A DNA stretch of 41,288 nucleotides, from assembly GCA_013298545.1 (NCBI GenBank), contig JAAFIA010000043.1, positions 1 to 41,288 on the forward strand. The letters run 5' to 3'. The DNA is from Bacteroidota bacterium (lineage in GTDB: Bacteria > Bacteroidota > Bacteroidia > Palsa-965). Shown here piece by piece: positions 294 to 37,670 of the stretch. The position numbers and the translations under genes were made by a program. The notes beneath the pieces were generated by a model that worked only from the letters and a program-made list of their open reading frames with translations, did no database searches and was not told where the DNA came from. How positions within the stretch are numbered: position 1 is the stretch's first letter; the number at the start of each line of letters is the position of its first letter.

Positions 294-2873
294 TTATCGT
301 GTTACTTCTAACCAGCCACGTCTGGTTTTTGTACCAATGGTGATGAGGTAATAATACGTTCCATCGGCAACGGCATTTCCATTTTCGTCAAAACCACGAA
401 AAACAATATCGGTGTTGTTGTAGCGATTCGTGTTCCAAATGATTCCTCCCCAACGGTTGAATATGGTTACACGTACATTGGATGCGTTTTCGATTCCTGA
501 AATTATCCAGACATCGTTTTTGCCGTCGGCATTGGGGGTAATGCCGTTGAATATTTCTAGAACTACTGTTGTGCTATCCTCACACAAAGCCGTGTCTGTT
601 GCAATCGTAATTAATTCATACGCTTCGCATCCTGAATTCTGATCTGTAGCTGTTACGAAGTATGCGGTTGTTTGTGCAACGGTTGCAATTGGACTTGAGC
701 TAAATGGATTGTCTAATCCAGAAGATGGTAGCCAATTGTAAGAACAGGTAGCACATCCATTTATATTCAATTGAATAGGCTCATCTGGACAAATAGTCGT
801 ATCGGCTGTTGCTGTGATTGTAAAGCCGTTGGAGACATTGACCGTATAGATTGTGGGTAAGCTATAACACGTTGCACCAACGATATTGGGTGTAAAAATT
901 ACATAGTAGGTGTATGCTCCAGCGGGTGTATTGCTTGTAAATGGCGGTGTGTAGCTTGTTCCAAGTGCAACCAAATTTCCAAAAGCATCGAACCAAACTG
1001 GATTTTGTCCCTGGACGGCGGTAATCTGCAAAACAGGAATTGCTGAAGGATTGCACCACGATAAAGTTGTGGATTGATTATCGGGTTGTGGTGCTGCTGG
1101 AATACCCGTTACATAAATAGAATCGCGGAAAAAATCGGTACAAAATGGAACACCAACACGGTATTCGACCACAACCCACACCGGTAAACTTGCACTAGAA
1201 ACCGCATTCAGATCGATTTCTCCAGTGAATTGATCGACTGAAATACCTGCGACGCTTTGTGGCGAAATGAGCGTATAAAGACCGCCTGGTGTTTGCGGAA
1301 AAATGTCTTGTACAACAACTTGATCGCCGCAAATAAATTCGTCGGGATAATCAAATGCGGCTTGCGGAATGGGAGAAGAAACAATGAATACCGAATCGGT
1401 AACACTACAATTTAAGGTATCGGTAATCACCACATAATTCCATCCATCAGACAAATTAAATGCGGTAGAACCCGTTGCATTTGTTTGTGGCCAATAGAAT
1501 GTGTAAGGAGCTGTTCCTCCCGTTACGGAGGCTTGCGCTACACCATTTCCTGGGCCGCAACTGATGCTTACCTGATTCACATTTGATAGCAGTACAAAAG
1601 GAACTTTGACAGCAGTAATGGTGTAACATCCTGTACTTTGATTGTATGCAGACAATGTATAAGATCCCGCATTGGAGACAGGAAACACAAACGATGTAAT
1701 GGTGATGTTGAGCGCAGAATCGACAGCTTGATTATTCACATCATACAAATAATAATCAATCGTATCGGAAGCATTTGCATTGCTCACTCCAATTATTGCA
1801 GTTCCGTTATTGCAGTCTATTGACCCGTTTACAAATACGATTGGAGACACACAACTATCGCTAAACGCTTTTAATTCGAGTTTCAATGCAGGGTCAGGAC
1901 CACACGAAGTTGTTGCAGCACTTCCTGTTTGTCCGTCATTGAAAACATAAATTTTTGTAAGCAAATCGCCACCAGAATAAGCAGGCTTGACAATAGCTTC
2001 CCAGCAGGCTTGCCAAGACTGCAGAATAGTTGCGGCATCGCCCGTATTGTTATTTGGATTGCTATCTAAATCACCATCATAAAAGAAACCAAGTTGAGGT
2101 CCAAGTGGTGTCGAAGCCGTTGTCCATATCCAGCCATTGGTGGTATTTGGAGAACTTGGGGTATTGATCGGAACAATCGAATTGGGCAACCATTCGGCAC
2201 CAACCAAAGTTGGGATAATGCTATGCAAAGAAGATATGCCTTGGGTATTGAACCGATCTATTGTCAGACACATTTCGACTACATCGCCTGGGTAATACTG
2301 ACCATTTACAGGCGGTGTATTTAATTCAATGGACATATCCATAACACATTCGTTGCACGACTCAACACCAGCTACCGTAAGTTCGAAAGTGCCTTCTTCT
2401 TCCTCATCATATCCACCGATTTCCAAATAATATACACCGTTAAATGTTGGTGTATAAAAATCAACCAACATGGATCCTATTTGTGTGGTTGAACAATTAA
2501 GAGGGATTAGATTAACGCAATTGTTTTGCTCATCGAAGATGCGCACAAAAATAGAATCAAAGCCTACCGTAGTGGAAAATAAATTAATACGAACATAAGT
2601 AGATCGGGTCGTGAATTTATACCAAACATCGGGGCTACCCAATGGAAAGCAACTCGAACCTACAGGCCAAGCATAATCATAAGCAGCCCATTCGGTATCA
2701 CCAGAAACCGTAACAGAATCGCCCGCACCACAAGGGACAAAGTCCAATAAACCTAAGTCAGTTGCATTGCACTGTTGATCGTTTGGCGGTGGCGGATTTA
2801 TGGGCATTGCATAAATATCTACCGAACAGATGCAGAGGCAAAATAGGATAAGAAGGCGTATAGGTGTTTTCAT
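294..2873 (-). CDS. Secreted multidomain protein with type B T9SS sorting domain (gliding motility-associated C-terminus)
   Basis: An 859-residue exported protein. Residues 1-22 are a signal peptide. Residues about 35-170 look like a pre-peptidase-type beta-sandwich (SPDVWYKFTT, YYLEIGGYDEEEEGTFELTV), a fold common in secreted Bacteroidota proteins. The middle part is Ig/SprB-like beta-repeats with regularly spaced Cys (for example GGTAPYTFYWP). The last 90 residues are the CHU_C/TIGR04131-type domain: FNGITPNADGKNDVWII, then FNRWGGIIW and DGTYYYLI. This domain directs export by the type IX system and often surface attachment. No catalytic motif was seen, so an adhesin or surface structural role is the best guess. 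The ATG at 2873 is followed at once by the signal peptide. The gene has no recognisable -7 box upstream. Confidence 0.9.
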   Translation of the reverse strand: MKTPIRLLILFCLCICSVDIYAMPINPPPPNDQQCNATDLGLLDFVPCGAGDSVTVSGDTEWAAYDYAWPVGSSCFPLGSPDVWYKFTTRSTYVRINLFSTTVGFDSIFVRIFDEQNNCVNLIPLNCSTTQIGSMLVDFYTPTFNGVYYLEIGGYDEEEEGTFELTVAGVESCNECVMDMSIELNTPPVNGQYYPGDVVEMCLTIDRFNTQGISSLHSIIPTLVGAEWLPNSIVPINTPSSPNTTNGWIWTTASTPLGPQLGFFYDGDLDSNPNNNTGDAATILQSWQACWEAIVKPAYSGGDLLTKIYVFNDGQTGSAATTSCGPDPALKLELKAFSDSCVSPIVFVNGSIDCNNGTAIIGVSNANASDTIDYYLYDVNNQAVDSALNITITSFVFPVSNAGSYTLSAYNQSTGCYTITAVKVPFVLLSNVNQVSISCGPGNGVAQASVTGGTAPYTFYWPQTNATGSTAFNLSDGWNYVVITDTLNCSVTDSVFIVSSPIPQAAFDYPDEFICGDQVVVQDIFPQTPGGLYTLISPQSVAGISVDQFTGEIDLNAVSSASLPVWVVVEYRVGVPFCTDFFRDSIYVTGIPAAPQPDNQSTTLSWCNPSAIPVLQITAVQGQNPVWFDAFGNLVALGTSYTPPFTSNTPAGAYTYYVIFTPNIVGATCYSLPTIYTVNVSNGFTITATADTTICPDEPIQLNINGCATCSYNWLPSSGLDNPFSSSPIATVAQTTAYFVTATDQNSGCEAYELITIATDTALCEDSTTVVLEIFNGITPNADGKNDVWIISGIENASNVRVTIFNRWGGIIWNTNRYNNTDIVFRGFDENGNAVADGTYYYLITIGTKTRRGWLEVTR

Positions 2874-2932
2874 CAGGCCATGTTATAGGTAATCAAACAT
2901 TTAGCAAAATAATACAATTTCCTTTAACACAT

Positions 2933-2970
2933 AAAAAAAAGGTAAAACTTACCTGTTTTACCTTTTTTTT
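2933..2970. terminator. Bidirectional intrinsic terminator
   Basis: An 8-bp perfect stem (GGTAAAAC 2941-2948 pairing with GTTTTACC 2955-2962, loop TTACCT) is flanked by eight A on the left and eight T on the right. It can therefore terminate in both directions. It lies just after the stop of the PP2C gene (minus strand, stop at 2989) and so ends the yfiR-like/TPR/PP2C operon, separating it from the T9SS cargo gene downstream. Confidence 0.85.
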
Positions 2971-2988
2971 ATATCAGAAAAAATGTGC

Positions 2989-4779
2989 TTAAGCGATTCG
3001 GAACGCCATCACCAAAATATCATCCACCTGCTCTAAGTTTCCACGCCATTGCTCGATCGTAGCATCCATTGTTCGTTTTTGCTCGTGCATCGGAAGCGTA
3101 TGAATCTGTGTGAGGAAGGTACGGAACTGTCCAACCATAAACTTCTTGCCTTTCGGGCCGCCAAACTGATCGGCATACCCATCAGAAAAAATGTAAACCG
3201 TATCGCCTGCTTCGAGTTGAATTTCATGGTTGGTGAATCTTTTCGGAGCACCTTCATCGAGATAGCCAATAGACATTTTATCGACTTTAATTTCGGTCAA
3301 TTGATTGTTGCGAAACAGGTACATGGGATTGTTAGCACCAGCCATATTCATCACACGTGTTTTCGGATTGATGATGCAAAGTGTTAAATCCATCCCATCG
3401 CGTACAGCCGTTTCTTCGGAGTGTTGGTTGATGGTTTTTCCGGCCAGTGCATTCAGTTCATCCAGCATTTCTCCGGCTTTCAGCAAAGGACGCTCTTTCA
3501 CAATCTGATTGAGCATGTTGTTACCCACAATACTCATGAAAGCGCCTGGTACACCGTGGCCCGTACAATCAATCGCGGCAACTAAGATGTGTTCCTCTTT
3601 TTCAAACATCCAATAAAAATCGCCGCTAACGATGTCTTTGGGTTTAAAGAGAATAAACGAATCGGGCAACACACGGTTAATCGTTGCTGGTGCAGGAAGA
3701 ATGGCATCTTGCAAACGTTTCGCGTAGCGAATACTATCGGTTACGTGGTTGTATAGAATTTCGAGTTTGCGGCTTTGCAATTCGATTTCTTCTTTTTGAC
3801 GCACAACTTCTTCGGTACGTTCAATTACTTTGGCTTCGAGTACACGTTCATTCTCGCGCAAATCCTCGCGCATTTTGATCAATGCGTAACCCAAAGTGTC
3901 TTCGTTAGAAAGTGGTTTGTAGTACGAATCGAAATTACCCGCCCCGACTTCATTGGCAAATTCGGTTGTGAGTTTCATCGAATCGACGAGGCTATTGAGC
4001 GCAATAGACATTTCACCAATTTCGTCGTTCCGATTTTTGATCGATTCGCGCGGCAATACACCACGCGCCATTTGTAAGAGTATCGATTTTAATTTCTGTA
4101 CCGGTTTGGTAATTGTTCTGGCTGTAAGAATCGCAATGAGAATACCACCGACCGGAAGTACAATAAGCAGCAACATCACCACAATCTGCAATTGCTCAAA
4201 CGACTTGAGCATCTTGGTACGTGTAGCCCCAGCAGCTTTGTACTGTGCATTAATTAAGCGATCGAGGCGTTCAGAAATAACACGGGTTTGCACGGTAATC
4301 TCACCATCTTCATCAAGCACCATGGAACGCATGGGAAAAAAGATATTTGGATCTTCGTAATTATCAAATTTCCCTAATTGGTCTATGACTTGGCGGTGCA
4401 TGAGCCACAACGCTTCGCATTCGCTAAAAATAGAATCCATTTCATTGCGATCCTTTTTCTCCCATTGCGGCGTAAGTGTTGTAAAGCGGTTTTTTAATTC
4501 GAAGTAATTGGAATCAATCAAGGTACGCAAACGTGTTTTATCATCGCTCTGCCCTTGAATATTCACCCAATTGGAAACAAGCAATTTAGAACGCGTAATG
4601 AGCAAGCGAGAATCTTGCAACGCATCAATCGAAGGCGTATAAAGTCGCGCAATTTTATCGTTGATTTCGCGACTCTGCCTGATGGTAAAAAGCGTCAGTG
4701 CAAAAGCTAAGAGTGTGAGAAAAATCAGCACACTGAAACCTAATATAATTTTACGACCAATGGTAAAGCGGAAATTCAT
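2989..4779 (-). CDS. Membrane-anchored PP2C (SpoIIE-type) serine phosphatase with HAMP domain
   Basis: A 596-residue sensor phosphatase. It has TM1 at about 11-33, an alpha-helical periplasmic sensor of four-helix-bundle type at about 34-197, TM2 at about 198-219, a HAMP domain at 220-272 (starts ARTITKPVQKL) and a coiled coil at about 305-345. The PP2C/SpoIIE domain spans about 350-596. Metal-binding acidic residues are in SGDFYW (D386), DCTGHGVPGA (D404), DGMDL (D462), SDGYADQFGG (D533) and QVDDILV (D586), so it should be active on phospho-Ser/Thr. This architecture matches SiaA of Pseudomonas. The catalytic domain closely resembles that of the protein at 19914-23261. It is the last gene of an operon with a YfiR-like and a TPR protein, 49 bp after the TPR stop. 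The likely substrate is a SiaC-like or anti-sigma-antagonist-like phosphoprotein; SiaC is encoded at 24970. Confidence 0.92.
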   Translation of the reverse strand: MNFRFTIGRKIILGFSVLIFLTLLAFALTLFTIRQSREINDKIARLYTPSIDALQDSRLLITRSKLLVSNWVNIQGQSDDKTRLRTLIDSNYFELKNRFTTLTPQWEKKDRNEMDSIFSECEALWLMHRQVIDQLGKFDNYEDPNIFFPMRSMVLDEDGEITVQTRVISERLDRLINAQYKAAGATRTKMLKSFEQLQIVVMLLLIVLPVGGILIAILTARTITKPVQKLKSILLQMARGVLPRESIKNRNDEIGEMSIALNSLVDSMKLTTEFANEVGAGNFDSYYKPLSNEDTLGYALIKMREDLRENERVLEAKVIERTEEVVRQKEEIELQSRKLEILYNHVTDSIRYAKRLQDAILPAPATINRVLPDSFILFKPKDIVSGDFYWMFEKEEHILVAAIDCTGHGVPGAFMSIVGNNMLNQIVKERPLLKAGEMLDELNALAGKTINQHSEETAVRDGMDLTLCIINPKTRVMNMAGANNPMYLFRNNQLTEIKVDKMSIGYLDEGAPKRFTNHEIQLEAGDTVYIFSDGYADQFGGPKGKKFMVGQFRTFLTQIHTLPMHEQKRTMDATIEQWRGNLEQVDDILVMAFRIA

Positions 4780-33490: not shown

Positions 33491-34498
33491 TCAATTCATC
33501 AATTTCCAGAGTTCGTCTTTGAGTTGAAGCACATTTTTGGTACTGTGCGAAGAGAAAATCACATAAGGAATTTTAAATTTCTTCGCAAAACGTTTATCCA
33601 GATCGGCTTTGACTGCAGCGTACAATTCCTCGTCGAGCAAATCGGCTTTAGAAATTCCGAGCATGCGTTTTTTATCCAGCAATTCGGGATTGTAGAGTTT
33701 TAATTCGTTGAGCAGAATTTTATAATCTGCAACAATATCATTGCTATCAGCCGGAACTAAAAAGAGCAAGCTCGAATTGCGTTCGATGTGGCGCAAGAAA
33801 CGTACCCCCAAGCCTTTTCCTTCGTGTGCGCCTTCAATGATTCCGGGAATATCGGCCATCACAAACGAGCGGTGGTCGCGGTAACTCACCATGCCCAAAT
33901 TGGGAACGAGTGTGGTAAACGGATAATCGGCAATTTCTGGTTTTGCCGCCGAAACAACAGACAGCAAGGTTGATTTACCCGCATTCGGAAAACCAACGAG
34001 GCCCACATCGGCGAGCAATTTCAATTCAAATACTTTCCACTCAATTAATCCTTCTTCGCCGGGTTGGGCGTAGCGTGGTGTTTGGCGCGTCGATGTTTTG
34101 AAAAAGCTATTTCCTTTTCCACCACGTCCGCCAGGCACAACAATGCGTTCTTCGCCGTCTTCGGTAATTTCAAAAATGATTTCACCGGTTTCGCCATCGC
34201 GCATCACGGTTCCGAGTGGTACTTCAATAACTTCGTCTTTGCCCTCTGCGCCCGTCATGTTTTGGCGCGATCCGCTTTCGCCATCGGCAGCAATAACATG
34301 CTTGCGGTACTTGAGGTGTAGCAAGGTCCAGAGTTGCGCATTGCCACGCACAATCACGTGCCCACCGCGCCCGCCATCGCCACCATCGGGACCACCTTTA
34401 GCTGTTTGGGCGGTACGCAACAAATGCACCGATCCACCGCCTCCTTTTCCGGAGCGGCAACAAATCTTCACATAATCAACAAAACTGGATTCGGACAT
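33491..34498 (-). CDS. obgE: Obg-family ribosome-assembly GTPase
   Basis: A 335-residue protein of normal length. The N-terminal Obg fold (about 1-160) is glycine-rich: [44 protein letters not shown]. The G domain follows, with G1 [12 protein letters not shown]2 [12 protein letters not shown]3 [18 protein letters not shown]4 GISKADL and G5 FSSHSTK. It acts in late 50S subunit assembly and stress response. It lacks the extra C-terminal domain of some Obg proteins, as is usual in this phylum. It starts 28 bp after adk in the hpt-adk-obg operon, a conserved order in Bacteroidota. Confidence 0.97.
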
Positions 34499-34526: not shown

Positions 34527-35711
34527 TTAGTTGCGGCGTGTATTTTTCTTTTTGGCAACAGGACGTGTGGCTTTTTTAGCAACCGCTTTTTTAGCCGGAG
34601 CTTTTTTCGCAACGGGCTTCTTAGCCACTACTTTTTTGGCAACTGGTTTCGCCAGTTTTTTAGTTACTTTTTTTGCCACCACTTTTTTCGCAGCGGGTTT
34701 TGTTGTTTTTTTCACAACAAGTTTTTTAACAGCTTTCTTCGCTACACTTTTCTTTGTTACTTTTTTCGCAGCGGGCTTCGCCACTTTTTTCGCAACGGTT
34801 TTCTTCGCTGTTATTTTTTTCGCGGCTTGTTTTGCAACAGGCTTCGTTACTTTTTTAGCAATGGTTTTCTTCGCTGCTTGCTTTGTAACTTTTTTAGCGG
34901 CAGGCTTGGTTGTTTTTTTAACTGCGGCTTTTTTATCGCTTGTAGTTGCTGCGGCTTTTTCTTCTTTCACACCAAGGATGGCAGGAAGTGGTTCACGCAA
35001 TTTTTCCATGGCGGCCAAGCGTTTGGCTTCTTTTTCGGCAGCTGCCTTACGCGCTTTGATGCGTTTGGCTTTTCGTTCTTGAGCCGCTGCACGTGCTGCT
35101 TCTACTTTTATCGATCCTTTTACACGCAAGGGCGCTGTTTCAGCGTTGATGCGCAAACACAATTCGGCATAAACAACTTCGACCATGTGTTCACCGTTTA
35201 CGCCACGATACAAGCGACGGAATTTATACACATCAATCACAGGCGATGTTTCGTCTTCATACACTTTCAACCGATTGCCAACTACAACAGGATCTTGATC
35301 GTCTGCACGGTCAGAAAGTTTGCCACGCTCAACAATACGACGAATCAATTCGTCGCGGTTTTTCACTTCGAGCGAAACAACAACGGTGAGCTTGCCGCCA
35401 CGACGTTGCAGCATGTCATCCAACATCGGAACTTGCTCCACGGTACGTGGAAATCCGTCGAAAATAAATCCTTCCGCTTTCGGATATTTATTCATTTCAT
35501 TTTCGAGCACACCAGCCACCAACGAATCAGGAACAAGTTGTCCTTGGTTGATGAAATCTTGCGCTTGCTTGCCAAGTGGTGTTCCTGCTTTGCGTTCTGC
35601 ACGCAAAATATCTCCGGTAGAGAGGTGAACAACGTTATACTTCGCAGCAAGTTTTGCCGATTGTGTTCCTTTGCCAGCGCCAGGAGGGCCGAAAATAACG
35701 ATATTGAGCAT
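34527..35711 (-). CDS. adk: Adenylate kinase with a long histone H1-like Lys/Ala-rich C-terminal tail
   Basis: Residues 1-190 form a complete short-LID adenylate kinase (ATP + AMP to 2 ADP): P-loop GPPGAGKGTQ (8-17), STGDILRAE for AMP binding, GFIFDGFPRT (81-90), the Arg-rich RADDQDPVVVGNRL and VIDVYK. Bacterial Adk normally ends near here. This one continues with a charged helix at about 200-240 (AARAAAQERKAKRIKARKAA), a short linker, and about 140 residues of KK-x-x-AKK repeats ending KKKNTRRN. The tail resembles histone H1/Hc1-type DNA- or RNA-binding tails. The frame is continuous with no sign of a shift, and no separate start is needed. It lies in the hpt-adk-obg operon, 43 bp after hpt. 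Kinase activity is near certain; the tail function is unknown. Confidence 0.93.
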   Translation of the reverse strand: MLNIVIFGPPGAGKGTQSAKLAAKYNVVHLSTGDILRAERKAGTPLGKQAQDFINQGQLVPDSLVAGVLENEMNKYPKAEGFIFDGFPRTVEQVPMLDDMLQRRGGKLTVVVSLEVKNRDELIRRIVERGKLSDRADDQDPVVVGNRLKVYEDETSPVIDVYKFRRLYRGVNGEHMVEVVYAELCLRINAETAPLRVKGSIKVEAARAAAQERKAKRIKARKAAAEKEAKRLAAMEKLREPLPAILGVKEEKAAATTSDKKAAVKKTTKPAAKKVTKQAAKKTIAKKVTKPVAKQAAKKITAKKTVAKKVAKPAAKKVTKKSVAKKAVKKLVVKKTTKPAAKKVVAKKVTKKLAKPVAKKVVAKKPVAKKAPAKKAVAKKATRPVAKKKNTRRN

Positions 35712-35754: not shown

Positions 35755-36306
35755 TTAATCTTTGCTGATGACCCAAATGTCTTTCAAATTGCGACCAAGG
35801 CCATTGTAATCGAGGCCGTAACCAACAATGAACGCATCGGGTATTTCGAGTCCGATGTAATCAATCGGAATGGTGCGGGTGTAAGCGTGTGGTTTGAAAA
35901 GCAAGGTGGCGATACGAATTTCGGCGGCGTGTTTTTCTTTCAACAAACCTACCAACGTTTCCATTGTAAATCCGGTATCTACAATATCTTCGACAATAAC
36001 AACCGTACGACCATTCAAATCTTCGTTCAAGCCGATAAGTTGTTTCATGGTACCGGAAGATGAAGTGCCGTGATACGAAGCGAGTTTGACAAACGAAAGT
36101 TCGCACTCAATGCGTACATCGCGCAACAAATCGGCGGCAAATAAAAATGCGCCGTTGAGGACAACCAAAAATAATGGACGTTTGCCTTTGAGGTCTTCGT
36201 TCATGCGTTCGGCCAAAGCCAAAACCGATTCCCGAATCCGCGTTTCGGAAATGTAAGGGACGAACGTTTTGTCGTCGAGGCGGATAATGGATGTGGTGCT
36301 GGTCAC
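35755..36306 (-). CDS. hpt: Hypoxanthine phosphoribosyltransferase
   Basis: A 183-residue enzyme when started at the GTG at 36306 (VTSTTSIIRLDDKTF), which gives the normal family length. The frame is open to 36480 but the extra part is unlike the family and overlaps the divergent gene. It makes IMP or GMP from hypoxanthine or guanine and PRPP (purine salvage). Motifs are LVVLNGAFLFAADLLR, SFVKLASYHGTSSSG, the PRPP loop VVIVEDIVDTGFTME, and VGYGLDYNGLGRNL near the end. It is the first gene of the hpt-adk-obg operon. A -7 box lies only about 10 bp before the GTG. Confidence 0.95.
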   Translation of the reverse strand: MTSTTSIIRLDDKTFVPYISETRIRESVLALAERMNEDLKGKRPLFLVVLNGAFLFAADLLRDVRIECELSFVKLASYHGTSSSGTMKQLIGLNEDLNGRTVVIVEDIVDTGFTMETLVGLLKEKHAAEIRIATLLFKPHAYTRTIPIDYIGLEIPDAFIVGYGLDYNGLGRNLKDIWVISKD

Positions 36307-36315
36307 AATAAGGCG

Positions 36316-36323
36316 CAAATTTA
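36316..36323 (-). promoter_or_regulatory. -7 promoter box of the hpt-adk-obg operon
   Basis: On the minus strand it reads TAAATTTG, an exact TAnnTTTG. It sits directly before the GTG of hpt at 36306, which would make the mRNA leaderless or nearly so. No good -33 element was seen. Confidence 0.45.
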
Positions 36324-36395
36324 GGAAAAGTAAGCTGATTTGTGTTATATTCTTTTGGGTTGGGTAAGAACCTTTTTTAATCTGGTGAATAAATC

Positions 36396-36403
36396 TACAT
36401 TTG
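36396..36403 (+). promoter_or_regulatory. -7 promoter box of the T9SS gene at 36426
   Basis: TACATTTG matches TAnnTTTG exactly and lies 22 bp before the GTG start at 36426, leaving a leader of about 16 nt. No -33 TTTG at the usual distance. Confidence 0.45.
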
Positions 36404-36425
36404 GCATCCAAAAATTTCCCTGACC

Positions 36426-37670
36426 GTGAAAAAAATTCTTGTTTTACTACTGCTTTCATGCAGTTTCTTTGCCCAAGCACAAACCACTTCCGTGTTTCAT
36501 GTCGAATCGGAATATACTGTTCAATATGGCTATCGGTATTTTTTCGATAAACTCAATCCGCAAACAGGTGTTTCTGTACAAATTGCGCAATTACCCATTG
36601 TTGGTTTTTTTAGTGGTACGGGGTTCTTCAATTGTTTTGGACATTATGTTTTTCAAGGTATAGACAGTGTGCTCCAAAACGGCGATAATGCGAATGCGCT
36701 ATACGAAGTTGATACGCTGGGCAACTTGATTCGTTCTTTTCCGATGGATACCGCGCAAGGTACATGGTATCTTTCTACTTTTCCTTCTGCCGGAACCGCA
36801 TTCTATTATGCCATCCGATTGGATGTATTTACAGGCAACTGGATCGCCGAAAAAATCAATGCGCTTACAGGTGCACGAACGCTGCAGACACTTCCCATTC
36901 CGACAACGTACAGTTTTATCAATTCGGCACAAACCATAACCCGAAACGATGTGCTTTGGTTTAGTGTATATGATCAACTCGCAACAAATACTTATTTGCT
37001 GAGTTTCGATCCGGCAAACGGGCAATTGACATACGCCGATACGCTTCTCGGTTATGGTTATGATTACGAAGCATTGAATTATGATTGCGCCAACGATACG
37101 ATTTACGGTTTTGTGGCGCATGGCGATACCGTTTCGGGTGCAGAACTGATTAAAATTCATGGGGCTTCTGGTACCGTTATACATACTGGCATTACCGCGC
37201 AGGGTGTATTGAATGATCGTTTTGCTGGTCGTTCGCATACGCGTTTAACTGATGGGCGTTTTTACATGCACACGTTCAATGCAACGTATTTGCTTCCCAA
37301 TTTTTATGTTTCAGGTCCAACATTTGTTTTGCCTACTACAGCTGCACAACAAACGCTTTCGGTCTTTTGTATGGCTGCCCCGCGCGAAACGTGTAGCTTT
37401 TATACGGCTTGCGAAACCAATGGAATTGGTGTTTTAGCAGAAACACAAACGAGTTTGTTTCCCAATCCGGTAGTGCATGGGTTGGTTTATATCAACGGTG
37501 AGGGTGAGTTTATCTTGACCATTTTTGATCTTACAGGAAAACGTGTGCTTGAGGTTTCGGGCAATAAAGGGATGGTTGTTTCTTTGGCGAGTTTGGCTAG
37601 GGGTATTTATGTGGCTCAACTCGTAACAGACGGAAAAACTGCTGTACAAAAACTAATTATTGAGCCTTAA
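36426..37670 (+). CDS. Secreted protein with type A T9SS (Por) sorting tail
   Basis: A 414-residue protein with a GTG start at 36426 (GTG AAA AAA ATT). Residues 1-19 are a signal peptide ending FFAQAQ. The body to about 330 is all-beta, with repeating patterns that look like a propeller recording values (YEVDTLGNLIRSFPMD, LLSFDPANGQLTYADTLLG, YDCANDTIYGFVAHGD). The last 75 residues are a Por-type tail: TSLFPNPVVHGLVYINGEG, IFDLTGKRVLEVSG and LARGIYVAQLV. It should be exported by the type IX system. No enzyme motif was found, so its role is unknown. It is divergent from hpt. Confidence 0.88.
   Translation: MKKILVLLLLSCSFFAQAQTTSVFHVESEYTVQYGYRYFFDKLNPQTGVSVQIAQLPIVGFFSGTGFFNCFGHYVFQGIDSVLQNGDNANALYEVDTLGNLIRSFPMDTAQGTWYLSTFPSAGTAFYYAIRLDVFTGNWIAEKINALTGARTLQTLPIPTTYSFINSAQTITRNDVLWFSVYDQLATNTYLLSFDPANGQLTYADTLLGYGYDYEALNYDCANDTIYGFVAHGDTVSGAELIKIHGASGTVIHTGITAQGVLNDRFAGRSHTRLTDGRFYMHTFNATYLLPNFYVSGPTFVLPTTAAQQTLSVFCMAAPRETCSFYTACETNGIGVLAETQTSLFPNPVVHGLVYINGEGEFILTIFDLTGKRVLEVSGNKGMVVSLASLARGIYVAQLVTDGKTAVQKLIIEP

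What the first reader, a model, noticed from the sequence alone, without database searches (positions are those of the whole stretch)
34527..35711. Adenylate kinase carrying a histone H1-like tail
A complete Adk domain (1-190) runs without a break into a charged helix and about 140 residues of KK-x-x-AKK repeats, like histone H1/Hc1 tails. I do not know of a described Adk of this kind. The tail could tether nucleotide metabolism to the nucleoid or ribosome, or respond to polyphosphate or RNA. Its operon partner Obg is a ribosome-associated GTPase, which makes a ribosome link plausible.
Basis: partly seen in the sequence, partly recalled or inferred. Interest (0 to 1): 0.6.

Follow-up and report, generated by a model that had tools for sequence, protein, structure and literature searches.

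The report
Adenylate kinase with histone H1-like tail
A common energy-balancing enzyme here carries a long, floppy, positively charged tail like that of histone H1; the same addition has arisen or been lost several times in unrelated bacteria, which suggests that the tail does something useful, probably holding the enzyme on DNA, RNA or polyphosphate.

Summary
Window 34527-35711 (-) encodes one 394-aa protein: a complete short-type adenylate kinase (Adk, about 1-190, all invariant residues of its relatives kept), a charged helix (to about 238) and a disordered lysine/alanine-rich tail (about 247-394, net charge +54, pI 11.5). It is the only adk in the genome and sits in the usual hpt-adk-obg order.

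It is neither an assembly join nor unique. A congener's tail is over 270 aa, made of KPAA repeats, and its assembly breaks inside it. Tailed Adks occur in 13 of 96 sampled Bacteroidia with an Adk, in a patchwork needing at least 5-7 gains or losses. They also occur in two Gammaproteobacteria and in an Alphaproteobacteria-like group that NCBIfam already models (NF010381/PRK13808) without naming the tail. In one gammaproteobacterial order a separate H1-like gene lies just downstream of adk in 5 of 30 loci.

Most likely the tail is a flexible polycation that anchors active Adk to a polyanion: nucleoid DNA, RNA or polyphosphate. The best analogue is the KPAA tail of AlgP. The ribosome/Obg argument fails: Obg also neighbours tailless Adks. 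No binding was tested. Ruling: a repeatedly arising new variant of a known kind, apparently undescribed.

The parts
35142..35711 (-). adenylate kinase domain, short type, residues 1-190 (P-loop GPPGAGKGTQ, GFPRT, R-x-DD motif)
   Evidence: Pfam ADK 1.4e-47; NF001381 adenylate kinase above cut-off; 20-sequence alignment with all invariant residues kept; AlphaFold2 pLDDT mostly 83-95
34974..35141 (-). charged alanine/lysine/arginine/glutamate linker, residues 191-246, predicted as a continuation of the last Adk helix to about residue 238
   Evidence: composition, net +9; AlphaFold2 helix 177-238 with a weak point at 197-200
34530..34973 (-). histone H1-like disordered tail, residues 247-394 (36% K, 22% A, net +54, pI 11.5)
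   Evidence: composition; HC2 sub-threshold match 6e-5; pLDDT mostly below 52
33491..34498 (-). obg/cgtA GTPase, downstream neighbour (context only)
   Evidence: Obg_CgtA above cut-off; found beside tailed and tailless adk
35755..36480 (-). hpt, hypoxanthine phosphoribosyltransferase, upstream neighbour (context only); the open frame as listed, the domain covers about its last 165 residues
   Evidence: HGPRTase TIGR01203 above cut-off; conserved neighbour

Best explanation
It is the cell's only and, by its residues, catalytically competent adenylate kinase (2 ADP <-> ATP + AMP), to which evolution has added a helical spacer and a long disordered polycation. The tail most likely works as an electrostatic tether. 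Its evenly spaced lysines bind a polyanion without sequence specificity (nucleoid DNA, RNA or polyphosphate), which raises the local Adk concentration there or holds a reserve of Adk in condensates. Shown: the fused frame, the intact active-site residues, predicted disorder, charge, conservation and repeated acquisition or loss. Inferred: that the tail binds a polyanion and changes location. Open: which polyanion.
For: Single adk in the genome, residues intact. Tail net +54 and disordered. Tailed Adks in 13 of 96 Bacteroidia with a match and in all 9 examined members of family f41. Adk-core tree: at least 7 changes of tail state, at least 5 forced by well-supported branches, so the state changes repeatedly. 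Length, lysine share and charge are kept (tails 92-257 aa, net +33 to +92 where complete) while the basic part aligns worse than the core, 44-62% against 74-87% identity. In the window the repeats are kept in protein but not in DNA. The linker is conserved within families, e.g. 72% identity in f1/g3. H1-like tails fused to Adk also in two Gammaproteobacteria (L005, L120) and in 5 of 199 Pseudomonadota over the NF010381 cut-off. In one gammaproteobacterial order a separate lysine-rich gene lies downstream on the same strand in 5 of 30 adk loci and never upstream. Published analogue: AlgP's C-terminal KPAA tail is needed for polyphosphate granule spacing, and KPAA peptides bind DNA (PMC9239181). 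TopA lysine repeats raise processivity (PMC7398561).
Against: No binding or localisation evidence exists for any tailed Adk. Congeners G001-G005 do without the tail, so it is not needed for Adk function. Only G000 and G006 carry many KPAA/KPVA units; other tails are KK-V/A rich, so the AlgP analogy is one of composition.
Confidence: 0.6

Rival explanations
1. The tail is specifically a polyphosphate-granule address: it brings Adk to polyphosphate, where Adk with PPK regenerates ADP/ATP from AMP in starvation. (A narrower form of the best explanation.)
For: AlgP, with a tail of the same kind, is on polyphosphate granules. A review reports that overproduced E. coli PPK1 enhances Adk and yields polyphosphate:AMP phosphotransferase activity (PMC3163519). 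The own genome has ppk1. Other proteins of this genome with H1-like N-termini are starvation-linked by family: RsfS and a DksA/TraR-like protein.
Against: ppk1 does not go with the tail: 12 of 13 tailed and 63 of 83 tailless genomes have it (Fisher p = 0.29, not corrected for kinship). Polycations also bind DNA and RNA.
Confidence: 0.2
2. The tail targets Adk to ribosomes or ribosomal RNA, linked to Obg.
For: Obg is the next gene; basic tails occur on ribosomal proteins; RsfS of this genome has a similar basic N-terminus.
Against: The Obg neighbour is also found beside tailless Adks.
Confidence: 0.08
3. The tail is a near-neutral low-complexity expansion with no selected function.
For: Lysine/alanine repeats can grow by slippage: the G006 tail is a near-perfect KPAA repeat in DNA. 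Presence is patchy.
Against: In the window repeats are kept in protein but not DNA. Basic composition is kept over several families, linkers are conserved, and the fusion recurs in several lineages.
Confidence: 0.12
4. The tail is made as a separate H1-like protein from an internal start, or the join is an assembly error.
For: A Met lies in the linker just before the tail in G000 and G006; separate H1-like genes follow adk in some Gammaproteobacteria.
Against: Other tailed Adks have no consistently placed linker Met. In-frame tails recur in independent assemblies, and the G006 tail on contig C47 runs straight on to Obg as expected.
Confidence: 0.03

Closest known systems
NCBIfam NF010381 / PRK13808 'adenylate kinase' (335-position model)
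   Same: Short-type Adk followed by a long H1-like K/A tail; the window protein aligns to 3-329 of 335 positions, and members L149-L153 carry tails such as KKAVKKAAKKAHKKGARKAAKKVTKKRAKR.
   Different: The window protein scores 174 bits against a cut-off of 426; the alphaproteobacterial-type core and tail look like an independent acquisition (inference).
AlgP and PhaF of Pseudomonas (KPAA tails, histone H1-like)
   Same: C-terminal disordered K/A/P repeats; AlgP associates with polyphosphate granules, and KPAA peptides bind DNA (PMC9239181). The G006 tail is a KPAA repeat.
   Different: AlgP and PhaF have other N-terminal domains and no nucleotide kinase domain.
Chlamydial histone-like protein Hc2 (Pfam HC2)
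   Same: Composition and short lysine-rich repeats; sub-threshold match 6e-5.
   Different: Below the gathering score; Hc2 is a stand-alone DNA-binding protein.
Actinobacterial topoisomerase I with C-terminal lysine repeats
   Same: An essential enzyme altered by a lysine-repeat tail, which confers high processivity (PMC7398561).
   Different: TopA acts on DNA; the substrates of Adk are free nucleotides, so the tail is unlikely to serve substrate binding.

Membership tests
Adenylate kinase, short type (PF00406) | ADK domain over the curated cut-off | tested here: met
   162 bits against 26.8; NF001381 208 against 187
Adenylate kinase, short type (PF00406) | P-loop, NMP-binding and catalytic arginine/aspartate residues conserved | tested here: met
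   G8-Q17 (all but A12), G86-T90, R125, R129, R135, D137, D138, R147 invariant in the alignment that includes it
Adenylate kinase, short type (PF00406) | Adenylate kinase activity | not testable with these tools
   needs purified protein
NF010381 / PRK13808 tailed adenylate kinase | score over the curated cut-off of 426 bits | tested here: not met
   174.2 bits although aligned end to end
Histone H1-like HC2 family (PF07382) | score over the gathering cut-off of 40 bits | tested here: not met
   23.7 bits, E 6e-5
AlgP/PhaF-type KPAA tail proteins | C-terminal disordered K-P-A-A repeats | tested here: inconclusive
   6 KP[AV]A units and 9 KKxxAKK in the window tail, 29 KP[AV]A in the two pieces of the G006 tail, few or none in other families; disorder predicted
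AlgP/PhaF-type KPAA tail proteins | binding of DNA or polyphosphate granules by the tail | not testable with these tools
   experiment needed

The most novel reading that the evidence does not exclude
Bacteria have repeatedly turned their single, essential adenylate kinase into a polyanion-anchored enzyme by adding an H1-like tail, so that the energy-charge reaction itself is localised to the nucleoid or to polyphosphate/RNA condensates and may be tuned by them. In some Gammaproteobacteria the same partnership would exist as two adjacent genes, adk and an AlgP-like gene.
Probability: 0.3. Interest if true: 0.75.

Novelty: new variant of a known kind. Interest (0 to 1): 0.5.

Why it matters
Adenylate kinase is usually pictured as a free enzyme that equilibrates the adenylate pool everywhere in the cell. 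A polycationic tail gained or lost many times on the only copy implies selection for where Adk acts. That makes spatial control of energy charge in bacteria directly testable, by cutting the tail off. It also adds an example of H1-like tails being used as a portable address on bacterial enzymes.

Tried and rejected
Assembly join: rejected, since independent genomes carry the tail and G006's tail spans a contig break with Obg following. Internal start giving a separate H1-like protein: no conserved linker Met. Obg neighbourhood as evidence for a ribosome role: also present without tail. Link with ppk1: not significant. Recent DNA repeat expansion: not seen in the window, though seen in G006. 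Long open frames as a proxy for tails: misleading, because several families carry HPRT-Adk fusions at the other end or long upstream frames, so every counted tail was read as sequence. Literature searches for a described Adk of this kind gave nothing.

Full report
What is there. The minus-strand frame 34527-35711 starts with ATG and reads 394 residues without a stop. Residues 6-164 match Pfam ADK at 1.4e-47, and NCBIfam calls it adenylate kinase over the cut-off. Invariant residues of 20 Bacteroidota Adks, including the P-loop, GFPRT and the R-x-DD motif, are all kept. It is the only ADK match in the 4.5-Mb genome, so this tailed enzyme must do the cell's adenylate kinase work if that genome (97% complete) is not missing another copy. 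The segment 247-394 is 36% lysine and 22% alanine with net charge +54, pI 11.5. AlphaFold2 with a 20-sequence alignment gives a confident Adk core, a last helix running from 177 to 238, and no structure from 246 on, with pLDDT mostly below 52.

Not an artefact and not a fresh repeat. In the congener G006 the Adk core (74% identical) runs into a KPAA tail that reaches the end of contig C46. Contig C47 begins with 200 further residues of the same repeat and then Obg, the expected next gene. In the window itself, exact DNA repeats of 15 bases or more are no more frequent than in synonymous shuffles of the same protein (15 nt: 4 against 1.4 +/- 2.3; 18 nt and longer: none). The repeat is thus kept as protein while its codons have scattered.

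Distribution. Of 99 relatives searched, 96 had a match, and 13 of these, G000 included, have a C-terminal tail with 26-40% lysine. Long frames from a second class-wide search were fetched and read. Tails were found in all 9 examined members of family f41 and in G191; the other long frames were HPRT-Adk fusions or upstream open frames. That second list was truncated, so no class-wide frequency is claimed. On a maximum-likelihood tree of 69 Adk cores (22 tailed; a set enriched for tails) tail state changes at least 7 times, and strongly supported branches alone force at least 5. A short single-gene tree cannot tell gains from losses. Five congeners of the window genome are tailless. The cores of G000 and G006 sit together on a long branch (1.35 changes per site), which I cannot explain.

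Beyond Bacteroidota. NF010381 (PRK13808) aligns to the window protein end to end at 174 bits, well under its 426-bit cut-off. Five of 199 sampled Pseudomonadota pass that cut-off, and their proteins end in long K/A tails. Their large genomes and the model's origin suggest Bradyrhizobium-like Alphaproteobacteria; this attribution is from memory and was not tested. Fused tails also occur in a Chromatiaceae MAG (L005) and in G335 (L120). In the order of Luminiphilus, 5 of 30 adk loci have a lysine-rich frame (17 or more K in 50 residues) downstream on the same strand, 0.4-1.2 kb away, and none upstream. L003, L004 and L006-L008 show the same arrangement, but they were retrieved with tail patterns and are therefore biased. 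Genes that are neighbours in some genomes and fused in others hint at a functional link; this is suggestive, not proof.

Selection. Within families the linkers are conserved: 58% identity in f41, with the motif ELTxLExDIEHLDLTxxDF, and 72% in f1/g3; between G000 and G006 they are not alignable. The basic part aligns at only 44-62% (core 74-87%), yet its length and charge stay in the same range. That is what is expected if composition rather than position is selected.

Function. The closest tested analogue is AlgP. Its C-terminal KPAA tail, likened to histone H1, is needed for even spacing of polyphosphate granules, and KPAA peptides bind DNA (PMC9239181). TopA of Actinobacteria shows that lysine repeats added to an enzyme can matter for activity (PMC7398561). 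For Adk, whose substrates are small, the simplest role is tethering. Polyphosphate is attractive because PPK1 overproduction in E. coli was reported to enhance Adk and give polyphosphate:AMP phosphotransferase activity (PMC3163519). The window genome has ppk1, but ppk1 does not track the tail (12 of 13 against 63 of 83, Fisher p 0.29). The Obg argument for ribosomes fails, since Obg lies next to tailless Adks too. Within this genome, similar basic extensions sit on RsfS and a DksA/TraR-like protein, and two stand-alone H1-like proteins exist, so the extension seems to be a reusable module there.

Verdict. Observation confirmed; interpretation partly supported. Adk with an H1-like tail is real, recurrent, already latent in an NCBIfam model, and apparently undescribed in the papers that could be searched (open-licence PMC only). 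The mechanism is inference.

Noticed in passing
G000 C1, about 132.0-133.0 kb (locus L065: 548-1336 and 1345-1986, minus strand): A DksA/TraR-type zinc-finger protein with a long H1-like N-terminus, preceded by a 213-aa stand-alone H1-like protein, downstream of what reads like the end of ileS.
   Followed up: partly
G000 C79:9297 (locus L083): RsfS ribosome silencing factor (PF02410, 1e-31) with a basic lysine/alanine N-terminal extension of about 50 residues.
   Followed up: partly
G000 C92:17935-18120 (locus L092): Small stand-alone KKAAAPKK repeat protein (108-residue open frame), no Pfam match.
   Followed up: no
L042 (G018), 1489-3045: An Adk with a different C-terminal extension of about 330 residues (11% K), without any Pfam match outside the Adk domain.
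   Followed up: partly
L054, L101, L103, L104, L110, L112, L113: HPRT and Adk fused in one frame (HPRT-Adk) in several Bacteroidia: the hpt-adk neighbours have become a single open frame.
   Followed up: partly
window 35142-35711 and G006: The Adk cores of G000 and G006 share a very long branch (1.35 changes per site) compared with other Bacteroidia; tailless congeners G003/G004 also lie on a long one (1.07).
   Followed up: no
L003, L004, L006, L007, L008, L128, L130, L131, L134, L144: Stand-alone lysine-rich AlgP/H1-like genes downstream of adk on the same strand in Gammaproteobacteria (in L004 and L006: mazG-adk-H1like-tsaB-uppP).
   Followed up: partly
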